Below the pieces are notes generated by a model. It saw only the letters and a list, made by a program, of their open reading frames with translations. It ran no database searches and had not been told where the DNA came from. 64,000 bases of DNA from Tubiluchus corallicola (Eukaryota > Priapulida > Priapulimorpha > Priapulimorphida > Tubiluchidae). Shown here one piece after another: positions 14,101-64,000 of the stretch (position 1 is the first letter of the stretch; every line of letters starts with the position of its first letter). The position numbers and the translations under genes are program-made. The DNA is taken from positions 1-64,000 of the forward strand of contig JAQGDQ010000946.1 of NCBI GenBank assembly GCA_030141605.1, written 5' to 3'.

Positions 14101-17100
14101 GCTGTGTCAGTAGAGCATGACAGAAAGAAGCCAAGTCAAGACATACATACGAATGCAGTTAAAGGACAGCATAGGGGGGTTTACAGAATGAGAGAACACT
14201 GAAGTAATAAAATAACCTAAAATCCTTCACAGTCACCAATCGCTGGAACTGTGAAAAGGCTTAATCGCTTAGTGCAACAAATAAAACATTCCAAGATTTA
14301 TTTTACTCTTTGATTAATCAATAACTGGGATGCTGTGTAGCCATAGATGTTACATGTTGATGTTATCATAGCTCTACTGCCGTTTGGCATACACCAAGCA
14401 AAACAGTGACACGTCTGTCTGTGACTGTTTATGGGGAAATCTTTGTATAACCGTTTTTCTTGCAGTAATTATAAATGACTATCTGAACTAACTATGGCTG
14501 TTCCTTATTTTCAGGCAGGAAAAATCCAGGTATTTGACATAGCTTCCGCAGTGTTGCTGGAGACAGTAGATGCTCACGAAGGTGCAGTGTGGTCTATCTG
14601 TTTGACACCTGACAATGTAAGACTTATTAGCTTATAAATTTCACAGAAATATGCGCTTAGATCATTATTGTTGTGGTTACGGCAATATTGCATATTGACA
14701 AATGTCGAAATTTGCTCAGATATGATGTATAGATACATAATTTTCTGGATGATTTGGACAATGTATATTTTACTTCTTTTAATCATGTCAATTCCCTTTA
14801 TTTAGACTCTGTCAGTGGATGCTTATGTTTTGGCATGATTTAGTTGATACACTAAGGCATTTTGTTCAAAGATCTCAAAATATGATCTTAAGATAGATTT
14901 TTGTAAACAATAATAATAATAATATTAGTATATTTATCATTTTAATGTAAACAATGACCGATTCCTATGTCTTAACAACATATGGACAAAGTTTTATGTA
15001 TATTAGTTATGAATTAATAACGAGTGAAAGAGCTCAATATCGTTATCATATATTTCAATAGCTGATATATTTCATTATACTTCGGAAGCTGTTGTGCCAT
15101 CTGGATTACCATAATCTGTTTTGCATTTTTTGATTTCGAAACGAAGGATGTATTACGTCATAACACTTAGTGAATGCAATACTAATTAGTCACTTCATTT
15201 AACGACAGTCTGTTAGCGTGTCCTGCTCTAGGTGTTTAAACTTTTTTGTTTTGCAAGCAAACGTAAATTCAATAATGAGGGAATAATGTACTGAGTACAG
15301 TGTGGTGTGTGATATTGACCAATCAGATTTGCTGTTGAGATTGTTTGTGTGTTAAGTTATCACGTGTGTTTGTTTGATGCCGTGCTTGGTCAACTTGTGC
15401 ACAAGCTTTGGTAAAATACGATGTAAGATGACTGTGTTGCTAATGTTGTGAATTGTTACATAATTCTTACATTATATGTTCATGTGGCTTAGAAACTAAT
15501 TCTTTATCGTTTTTTAGACAGATAATTTTACGTCTAGTTTACTTGGCAGTTTTTTCGGGGCAAATAAACTGTGATGAAAATCATGAATGACATTAGCTCA
15601 GAGCTGTTTGAATTTTAAATTTCTGAACAAACACATTTTATAAACAATTTGTTCATTTGTTCTTGCTTATGCCTTATTTTTTTATAACCGTATTTTTACT
15701 TATTGTCAAAAAGAGAGACAAAATAAAACCTCTGGCCGCAGTTATTGCTGATAAAGAGGCCCCAGGAAGAAGAAACGGTACACAGGTAATGTGGCTGTTG
15801 AAGATGAAATACATAAAAATAGATTGTGATTTAATACCCTATGAAATACATTCAATAGTATAATTCTACTTACTAATAAAATGTACCACACTGGCAAGCG
15901 AATTGACGAGTATTTTTTATATATGTTTAAACAATATATAAATGATATTGTTTAAACATATATAAAAAAATGATATTGTTTAAACATATATAAAAAATGA
16001 TATTGTTTAAACATATATAAAAAAATGATATTGTTTAAACATATATAAAAAATGATATTGTTTAAACATGTATAAAAAATACTCGTCAATTCGCGTGCCA
16101 GTGTGGTACATTTTATTAGTAAGTAGAATTCTACTATTGAACGTATTTCATAGTATATTAAATCACAATCTATTTTCATGTATTTCATCTTCAACAGCCA
16201 CATTACCTGTGAACTGTTTCTTCTTCCTGAGGCCTCTTTATTGCTTAAATTTGTGCATTTGATTTTACAGCGAGGAATTGTATCTGGTAGCGCCGATAAG
16301 CAGATCAAGTTCTGGAATTTTGAGATGATCTCGCATGAACAAGCTACGACATCAAGGTAGGGTTTTCAAATGCTAGTTTCACAAGTGCACTTATGTTAGA
16401 AATTGTTCTTTTTGATAAATACTATTATTTAGATGTCGCCAGTGCTTAAAAGATTGTTTTGTTTTTCCAGCAAACGGTTAAGCTTGATTCACACTCGCAC
16501 ACTACAGATGTCAGAAGATGTTCTATGTGTGAAGTGCAGCCATGATGGTCGATTGTTAGCTGTTTCATTATTAGACAATACAATTAAGGTGTTTTTTTTG
16601 GATACACTGAAGGTATGTGATTGTGACTTGAAAAATTTTTTAAATTTTCCATAAACTTTATTGACCATTTTTTATATTTGCATCACACTAAGCATGACTT
16701 AGAGAACACAATATTTGCTGATTTGAAAAACTCACATATAGATTGTCCTTATCACATTTTATTACCAATAGATAAGCTTCTTACTGTAAGCTGTTCTGCT
16801 TGAAAATTACTTCTTGTGTGTAAGCATGCGAGTAACATCTTAATTGTTAAAAACCAGATTTGATAACGACAAAACATAAACTTCTATCTTGCACGGTTTC
16901 AAAAATTTAAATTTTATTTAACCCAAAAATGTTTACTAAAAATTTATCCCCGTGATGTTTGCATGGTACTGCAAAAATAAACGTTAAAAAAAGGAGTTGG
17001 AGTGTTGACTTGAATTGTTTTTTAAAGTACATACACAGTTTTCAATGTAAGCATACTGGAATGTTGCAAAGTAGGTACTTTGTTTTTATTGCTTAGCATG

Positions 17101-20100
17101 TTAATAATATTCAGATAGTAATAAGTTGCAAGCCATTTGTAATGCAACTTCCTTTTAATGTAAATAGTAATAAATTGCAAGCCATTTATAATGCAACTTC
17201 ATTTTAATGTAAATAGTAATAAGTTGCAAGCCATTTGTAATGCAACTTCTTTTTAATGTAAATATTAGCAAGTTGCAAGCCATTTGTAATGCAACTTACT
17301 TTTAATGTAAACAATAATAAGTTGCAAGCCATTTGTTAAGCAACTTACTTTTAATGTAAATACTAATAAGTTGCAAGCCATTTGTTATGCAACTTACTTT
17401 TAATGTAAATAGTAATAAGTTGCAAGCCATTTGTAATGCAACTTACTTTTAGTGTAAATAATAATAAGTTGCAAGCCATTTGTAATGCAACTTAATTTTA
17501 GTGTAAATAATAATAAGTTGCAAGCCATTTGTAATGCAACTTTTAATGTAAATAGTAATAAATTGCAAGCCTTTTGTAATGCAACTTCCTTTTAATGTAA
17601 ATACTAATAAGTTGCAAGCCATTTGTAATGCAACTTGCTTTTAAAGGAAATGCTTGTAGCTGGCCAAGAATCTATCTGATTTTTAGCAAGTCATCTAAGT
17701 TAAAAAGACTGTAAATTGAAATATCTTTTGCCTGAAATTACTTACGTAATTCAAACGAGGATTTCCTCACAATTTCCCGCAGTACTGCCTGCGTATTATT
17801 ACGCATTCATCCAACTATAAACGATTTCTCTTAGTTGCTAATAATGTGCGATTTTTCTCTTTCTAGTTTTTCTTATCTCTGTACGGTCATAAGTTGCCTG
17901 TGTTGTCTCTGGACATTTCAACTGATAATACATTGTTGGTTAGCGGGTCAGCTGATCGCAATGTTAAATTGTGGGGCATGGATTTCGGTGATTGCCACAA
18001 GTCAATATTTGCTCATGATGATAGGTAAGTTCACATTTTACTTGTTACTAAAGTTTTACTTCCGTACTTGCAATTATTTATGTTATCAAACATGCGTTTT
18101 TCTGTTTTAATGACATTTTAATAGCAGACATGCAAGGTTAATAATAATCATTCTTATGTTGATAAAATGTTACTAGCCATCAATGATGAATAAATGAAGT
18201 CTTTTTTACGTATTTTATTACCCATTATCAGTATTCTCTCTCTGTACTGAAAATTGAGATAAGCAGTCAATGAATATTTAATGTAACGTACTCATTTTGT
18301 ACGCAAATATATGTCAGTAAGCCTTTTCGCAGTTTCGTTTTGCACACGCGCAGTTCCTGTAGGTCAAAAGTTAAATGTACCGCAGCAATACATCTGAACT
18401 ACAACTGTTACGCAATATGTGGATAAAGCAAAGCCATCTGCTGTATTAGTTCAGTAACCTGAACTTTACTTAATTATGAATTAGTCTGTGCATAGAGTGA
18501 TTTACTAGCAGGATCTTGTTTGGAAACAAGAAAAAATGATATAGGTAAAGTTCTAGCTAGCTGTTAAAACTGTTACTATTACAGTAGCATGGGCTGTGAG
18601 GCGTTGCCAAGTGTACATAAATGCGCTGTCACGCACACTTTAACTTTTGACCTATTCACGATCATCATCAATCGCTGGAACTGTGACAATGTTTTGAATG
18701 CAAAACTTAACTTAAACATAACTTAACAGAACGTAAAAGAATGCAAAACTTTTGTATTAAGCATATTAAATTTTACAAAACTATCTGTACGTTTTGTAAT
18801 TTAATGTGGCCTAAATGTATTACAAATATATTAATAAAAGTAATGCATTTTGTTTAATATGAGACCATTGATATGCTTTAACCTGAGCTATGATTTTGTA
18901 ATAACATTTGTTAGATTAATTACAATTATAATGATATTAAATTAGAAAAAAAGGTTCACGTTGCTTTCAAAATTTAAGAACCGGCGTTTTCCATGTGATA
19001 TCCTCCGCCTAGTTTCGAGATACAGTGTGAGCATCCCCACAAGTCTACAGCACCTGGTATTCCTAGGCGGTCACTCATCAAAGTACTAACCAGACTCTAC
19101 GTTGCTTAACTTCGGTGATCAGACGGAACTGGTGTTTTCAACGTGATTTGGCCGTAGATTTGGATAATGTGTACACAGTCTTTATCACACAATGACGTTC
19201 ATAACAAATTTAGAATCCGGTTTGATACTAAAGTGGATAGCAGCAAAGCTTCGTCCGAGTTTGCCTCAGGCTGCTTAAGCTTTGCACATCATTATTGTGT
19301 ATTTTTCCAATCATATAAATCACTTCATGTTTTCTCGGATTTATTTTACTAAGTTGTGAAAGTTGAAAAAGGAAAAATGCTATGAACACATTTTCTAAGA
19401 TTATTATTTCAAAGGCAATGCTAAAACAGGTCTTATCAGTTTTAACAATCAGGCTTAAAGCAGTTCTTTCAATATATTGTTGTTTACTGTATGTTGTATG
19501 ATAGTTATTAATTTTGACCAAACAGCATGCAGAAAAAAACGTTGTAGCGGCGCCTGGTGGGACTCTCGGAAGGAGATATATAGCTCTTTAGAAAGAGGAG
19601 GAACAGGGCTACACGATGATGTGGGCCATACTTTAGTACACGTCCACTAAGAGGAGTATCGACGAGTTAATTAGATGTTCTATTTTCTGCAATTTTCGCT
19701 TAGAAAACTCTAATAATTTGCATTATTTTTCAGTTGTCCTGTAAACGTTTTTTTTAAATTTCTTTTTTTAGTATCATGTGTGTGCAGTTTATACCAAACA
19801 CGCACATGTTTGTCTCTTGCGGGAAGGATAAAAATGTGAAGCAATGGGACGGCGACACTTTTGAGAAAATCTTGACGTTGCAGGTATTGCTTTCCTGTGT
19901 TTGTGTTATTTTGAGTTTTTGTACTTACTACAGATGTGGGGGTTGCAAACCTAAACTGTTCATAAGTGGGCATAGTTAAAACTACGTTATGATGCTTCAA
20001 AGTAGAATGACCCAAAAACTTGCTCAAATGTGAATTTTTGTTTTTTATAAAAACAAATGCAATATATATTGCATTTTTATATTCTAGCATCAAGAAAATG

Positions 20101-63848: not shown

Positions 63849-64000
63849 CTGAAAATAAGGAACAGCCATAGTTAGTTCAGATAGTCATTTATAATTACTG
63901 CAAGAAAAACGGTTATACAAAGATTTCCCCATAAACAGTCACAGACAGACGTGTCACTGTTTTGCTTGGTGTATGCCAAACGGCAGTAGAGCTATGATAA

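What the first reader, a model, noticed from the sequence alone, without database searches (positions are those of the whole stretch)
14363..64000. Giant palindrome: two ~23.5-kb arms around a 2.5-kb spacer
Every landmark on the left recurs reversed on the right, down to transposon insertions and minisatellites. It is either a young inverted duplication holding two WDR3 genes or two haplotypes joined head to head by the assembler. Small real differences between the arms exclude one sequence simply copied twice.
Basis: partly seen in the sequence, partly recalled or inferred. Interest (0 to 1): 0.9.

Follow-up and report, generated by a model that had tools for sequence, protein, structure and literature searches.

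The report
Fold-back assembly artefact, not a palindrome
A stretch of an animal genome assembly that reads the same forwards and backwards for 78,000 letters is most likely a laboratory or assembly copying error that folded one piece of DNA back on itself, because other pieces of the same assembly carry the same flaw.

Summary
The inverted repeat is real in the assembly and larger than reported. The window's contig, C1667, is only 78,361 bp and is one palindrome end to end: bases 1-37934 pair with 78361-40460 at 99.60%, and base 1 pairs with the last base. The left limit given, 14363, is only the mirror of the window edge. It is probably not a chromosomal palindrome, and it is not two haplotypes joined.

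(1) Contig C1426 carries a diverged version of the arms' outer end and is itself folded back, at another point. In a four-way comparison each contig's two arms group together: 82 sites separate the contigs, 0 cross-pair the arms. A haplotype join predicts cross-pairing.

(2) C1036 is palindromic at both ends and centre; C1643 probably is too. The three measured loops are 2.1-2.5 kb.

(3) A sulfotransferase gene splices in frame from the spacer into the left arm only, so the left junction is native and the break is near 40459/40460.

This is the shape of fold-back template-switch chimeras such as those of whole-genome amplification. Reads, organism and library method were not available, so a real inverted duplication is not excluded.

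The parts
1..37934 (+). left arm (A); base 1 is also the contig start
37935..40459 (+). spacer (loop), 2,525 bp, found once in the assembly apart from dispersed repeats in it
40460..64000 (-). right arm (B), inverted copy of A; it goes on beyond the window to the contig end at 78361
37929..37935 (.). left junction, native: a gene splices across it
40459..40465 (.). right junction, the inferred fold-back point, at the edge of a degenerate 16-bp-unit array
38629..38806 (-). exon 1 of the sulfotransferase gene, in the spacer; occurs once on the contig
36355..37298 (-). exon 2 of the sulfotransferase gene (Pfam Sulfotransfer_2); joined to exon 1 it gives an open frame of 373 aa
41020..42039 (+). 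arm-B copy of the sulfotransferase frame, same protein sequence, without exon 1
1971..29902 (+). WDR3 exons identified in arm A; the 5' start is beyond the contig

Best explanation
The palindrome is most likely an artefact: a fold-back (inverted) chimera built into the assembly. A DNA strand that ran from arm A into the spacer was switched back onto its own sequence near base 37934, about 2.5 kb behind its end near base 40459, and copied in reverse. Reads carrying that junction led the assembler to walk the same locus back again, so the contig starts and ends at the same genomic base. Shown: full-contig palindrome, native left junction, further fold-backs in the assembly, and grouping of arms by contig. 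Inferred: that the switch happened in the test tube, most probably during phi29-type whole-genome amplification, rather than in the animal; and that patches of difference between the arms come from consensus taken from different alleles.
For: C1667 pairs 1-37934 with 78361-40460, end base with end base. C1036: 1-4000 pairs with 52030-48037 at 99.65% and the centre folds at 26164/28282 (the parts between were not read). C1426: 33-19100 pairs with 39501-21279 in pieces of 95.0-98.7%, single copy from 39.5 to 48 kb as far as read. C1643: equal-score opposite-strand repeat pair with coordinate sum 62,199 against a contig length of 62,095. Loops 2525, 2178 and 2117 bp. C1426's fold lies inside sequence that both C1667 arms carry unfolded, and the sequences there share AAATGC at the switch (read). 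Arms group by contig: 82 sites A=B but not L=R, 0 cross-paired. In published MDA data 337 of 475 chimeras were inverted and under 10 kb apart, and 93.5% of such inversions had complementary bases at the junction (PMC1855051, passages).
Against: No reads, depth, organism or library method were available. Whole-contig fold-backs were rare in the survey (2 of 168 other contigs), and C2303 shows none in its first 80 kb. The arms of C1667 are not identical and C1426's differ by 1.3-5%, more than a pure copy would. At C1667 and C1036 the sequence just beyond the junctions shows no similarity above shuffled (also none at C1426, whose 6-bp match lies at the arm edge). Patchy divergence is also what gene conversion in a real palindrome would leave.
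Confidence: 0.84

Rival explanations
1. A real, young inverted duplication in the animal: a locus of about 38 kb copied in reverse next to itself, kept alike by gene conversion, with a second truncated sulfotransferase and a second WDR3.
For: Arms 99.60% alike with clustered differences and identical runs up to 7.2 kb, as gene conversion would leave. A 2.5-kb unique loop with one gene-breaking junction. Identical outer arms would explain equal contig ends. No other copy of 20600-24200 or of most of 36024-37500 was found in the assembly (only the 40 best candidates are scored).
Against: C1426 needs a second, different inverted duplication in the same locus, and C1036 and probably C1643 need more elsewhere. 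Neither C1667 end shows any single-copy flank.
Confidence: 0.1
2. Two haplotypes of one locus joined head to head by the assembler.
For: C1426 and C1667 differ by 1.7-2.8% at ungapped sites, so haplotypes may well be assembled apart. At arm site 2462 arm B shares its base with both C1426 arms.
Against: In the first 5.4 kb arms A and B differ at 2 of 5455 sites. Four-way patterns over 4917 ungapped columns: 82 A=B against L=R, 53 L alone, 1 A alone, 0 cross-paired. No inverted repeat lies beyond the junctions to cause such a join. The test covers only the stretch that both contigs share.
Confidence: 0.04
3. Missed hairpin adapter or duplex fold-back read of the sequencer.
For: Such reads are known in PacBio and nanopore data (PMC6218980 passages; PMC12870357 abstract and background).
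Against: Those reads turn at the molecule's end and should leave almost no loop (my inference); here the three measured loops are 2.1-2.5 kb.
Confidence: 0.02

Closest known systems
Inverted (palindromic) chimeras of multiple displacement amplification (PMC1855051, abstract and passages; PMC6218980, passages; PMC13265396, abstract and introduction)
   Same: Inverted orientation, loop well under 10 kb, short shared sequence at the one switch point that could be read, several loci; the gorilla Y assembly from amplified DNA is reported to hold numerous inverted duplications that vanish after read correction.
   Different: Here the evidence is an assembly, not reads; arms of 38 kb are far longer than one chimeric read need be; use of amplification for this sample is not known.
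Large natural palindromes such as those of primate Y chromosomes (arm range 8.7-1450 kb quoted in PMC6218980; gene conversion recalled)
   Same: Long near-identical arms around a short unique spacer.
   Different: No single-copy flank is visible at either end; fold-backs recur on other contigs of this assembly; two contigs pair first and last base.
Fold-back artefact reads of long-read sequencers (PMC12870357, abstract and background)
   Same: A sequence followed by its own reverse complement.
   Different: Described there as near-perfect concatemers of forward and reverse strand; here a kilobase loop remains unpaired.

Membership tests
Fold-back chimera of the MDA type | inverted join with a loop under 10 kb | tested here: met
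   loops 2525, 2178 and 2117 bp in the three contigs measured
Fold-back chimera of the MDA type | short complementary sequence at the switch point | tested here: inconclusive
   AAATGC at C1426 (read); for C1667 and C1036 the native continuation is not in hand; similarity beyond the junctions is at shuffled level in all three
Fold-back chimera of the MDA type | recurs at unrelated loci of the same data set | tested here: met
   C1036 checked at ends and centre, C1643 by coordinates only; 2 of 168 other contigs in a capped survey
Fold-back chimera of the MDA type | both arms come from one haplotype | tested here: met
   82 to 0 in favour of grouping by contig, first 5.4 kb only; 53 further sites where arm L alone differs show patchwork
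Fold-back chimera of the MDA type | DNA was amplified with a strand-displacing polymerase | not testable with these tools
   organism and library not identified
Natural chromosomal palindrome | different single-copy flanks beyond the two arms | tested here: not met
   arms run to both contig ends, base 1 pairing with base 78361; flanks outside the assembly cannot be excluded
Natural chromosomal palindrome | reads spanning the junction and doubled arm depth | not testable with these tools
   no reads available
Head-to-head haplotype join | arms correspond to two different haplotypes | tested here: not met
   first 5.4 kb of the arms

The most novel reading that the evidence does not exclude
The animal's genome really holds many young inverted duplications with loops of about 2 kb, arising by one fold-back replication process and fixed at different points on different haplotypes of the same locus, so that palindromes of tens of kilobases are a standing feature of its chromosomes or of linear amplicons derived from them.
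Probability: 0.06. Interest if true: 0.8.

Novelty: not a real feature. Interest (0 to 1): 0.2.

Why it matters
If taken at face value the contig adds a false second WDR3, a false truncated sulfotransferase, a second 5S rRNA gene and a false palindrome to gene counts and rearrangement studies. At least C1426 and C1036 have the same fault, so duplicated-gene counts and structural claims from this assembly should be checked for it. If the fold-backs proved real, they would be a striking case of recurrent inverted duplication.

Tried and rejected
Haplotype join: rejected on the four-way site table. Tandem-array or inverted-repeat-mediated misjoin: the right junction borders a degenerate 16-bp array, but the array runs in one direction only as read and no inverted similarity lies beyond the junctions. 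C2303, a 98% match to 244 bp of the arm, was followed as a possible parent locus: it shares only dispersed repeats and that 244-bp stretch with its neighbourhood (85% over 958 bp), and its first 80 kb hold no fold-back. C1430, with three equal-score hits, was suspected as another palindrome; its length of 17,688 does not fit a whole-contig mirror and its sequence could not be fetched. C508 and C1894 have opposite-strand repeat pairs of unequal score and C2303 one whose coordinate sum does not match its length; none was counted. Contig lengths were known for only part of the 168, so pairs elsewhere could only be judged by score and strand. Organism: COX1 was not found, an 18S search gave no usable answer, and paper searches by assembly size found nothing that fits. 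Papers on palindromic contigs: 2 listed, about bacteria, not opened.

Full report
What is there. The window is bases 1-64000 of contig C1667 of a 343.5-Mb, 2,344-contig assembly; from its genes it is an animal (my reading; species not identified). The contig is 78,361 bp long. Joined with the remaining 14 kb it is a single palindrome: 1-37934 pairs with 78361-40460, 99.60% over 37,944 columns with 99 mismatches and 21 gap openings, around a 2,525-bp spacer.

How the arms differ. There are 45 transitions, 54 transversions and 21 indels. They are not scattered: 108 of 120 events fall in clusters that together span 1.8 kb, while one run of 7,181 bp is identical, against a mean longest gap of about 1,690 bp and a maximum of 5,212 bp in 10,000 uniform draws. 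The clusters look like short patches of allelic difference, including shifted repeat units in the 21-bp minisatellite. Such patches fit either consensus drawn from different alleles or incomplete gene conversion; this pattern alone does not decide.

Genes and the junctions. Arm A carries WDR3 on the + strand: exon pieces match the WDR3 first and second beta-propeller and Utp12 models, and one matches human WDR3 in the PDB at 6.9e-35 (generic WD40 designs score higher). Tail to tail with it lies a sulfotransferase gene on the - strand (Pfam Sulfotransfer_2, 1.4e-40). An ATG exon with a predicted membrane segment (my reading), 38629-38806, lies in the spacer and joins at GT/AG sites to 36355-37298 in arm A as one open frame of 373 aa. 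That exon occurs once on the contig, so the arm-B copy of the gene has none. The left junction is therefore ordinary gene structure and the right one, near 40459/40460, is the break. It lies at the edge of a degenerate 16-bp array. Beyond the junctions the two sides are no more alike than shuffled sequence.

A second fold-back at the same locus. Searching the outer 4 kb of the arm found contig C1426 (78,079 bp) with two inverted copies of it at 93-97%. On C1426, 33-19100 pairs with 39501-21279 in pieces of 95.0-98.7%, around a 2,178-bp spacer that corresponds to C1667 arm bases 5451-7453 in reverse. C1426 thus turns inside sequence that both arms of C1667 carry straight through. At its switch the two source sequences share AAATGC (read). 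Beyond 39.5 kb it continues without a mirror image as far as read, to 48 kb. C1426 lacks a repeat insertion at C1667 1335-1809.

Test of the haplotype join. If each contig were two haplotypes joined, one arm of C1667 should resemble one arm of C1426. Aligning the first 5.4 kb of arms A and B (C1667) with L and R (C1426), over 4,917 ungapped columns, gave 82 sites with A=B and L=R different, 53 with L alone different, 1 with A alone different and 0 cross-paired; gap blocks likewise never cross-pair. A and B differ at 2 of 5,455 sites, A and R at 1.7%, A and L at 2.8%, and L and R at 1.05%. Each contig folds back on itself. The 53 L-only sites are clustered and show that C1426's arms are a patchwork, which I do not fully explain. 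The test covers only the stretch common to both contigs.

How widespread. In lists returned for dispersed repeats (40 candidates scored each) 168 other contigs appear. Two show mirror-image pairs that fit the contig length. C1036 (52,030 bp) was checked: 1-4000 pairs with 52030-48037 at 99.65%, and the centre folds at 26164/28282 around a 2,117-bp spacer; the parts between were not read. C1643 has an equal-score opposite-strand pair with coordinate sum 62,199 against a length of 62,095; this is probable, not verified. The survey sees a palindrome only when the repeat lies in its arms and both copies are listed, so 2 of 168 is a rough floor. The first 80 kb of C2303 hold none.

What it most likely is. 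Inverted joins with kilobase loops, recurring at several places, with both arms from one haplotype, are what displaced 3' ends produce in strand-displacement amplification: of 475 chimeras from an amplified E. coli cell 406 were inverted and 337 of those joined segments less than 10 kb apart (PMC1855051, passages). Assemblies from amplified DNA have been reported with many false inverted duplications (PMC6218980, passages), and palindromic reads are called pervasive in amplified microscopic animals (PMC13265396, abstract and introduction). Missed adapters and duplex fold-backs should leave almost no loop (my inference). I therefore judge the palindrome an artefact (0.84), most probably of amplification, but the method used for this sample is unknown. 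A real inverted duplication keeps about 0.1, and a haplotype join 0.04.

Limits. There are no reads, no depth, no species and no second assembly.

Noticed in passing
window 19042-19159 (-) and 59200-59317 (+): A full-length 5S rRNA gene match (Rfam RF00001, 91.2 bits) lies within the span of WDR3 in each arm.
   Followed up: no
window 39244-39587: A dispersed repeat of about 340 bp in the spacer, with copies at 94-98% identity on 39 other contigs among the 40 candidates scored.
   Followed up: no
window 1335-1809: A dispersed repeat insertion present in both C1667 arms and absent from both C1426 arms, so apparently an insertion polymorphism.
   Followed up: partly
window 21768 and 21780: The arms differ at two bases of one WDR3 exon, giving HHAEVWC in arm A and HHGEVWS in arm B; the other seven WDR3 exon pieces compared show no difference.
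   Followed up: partly
window 34542-35348 and 43046-43851: A 21-bp minisatellite of about 38 units in which units are shifted between arms while the total length stays the same to 1 bp.
   Followed up: no
window 39930-40459: A degenerate array with units of about 16 bp (GTTTGGTACT core) fills the right end of the spacer up to the break.
   Followed up: partly
window 31618-31917: An open frame resembling the tail of a non-LTR retrotransposon protein, from memory only; no Pfam match at 0.001.
   Followed up: no
G000 as a whole: No COX1 match in the assembly, so the mitochondrial genome seems not to be included.
   Followed up: no
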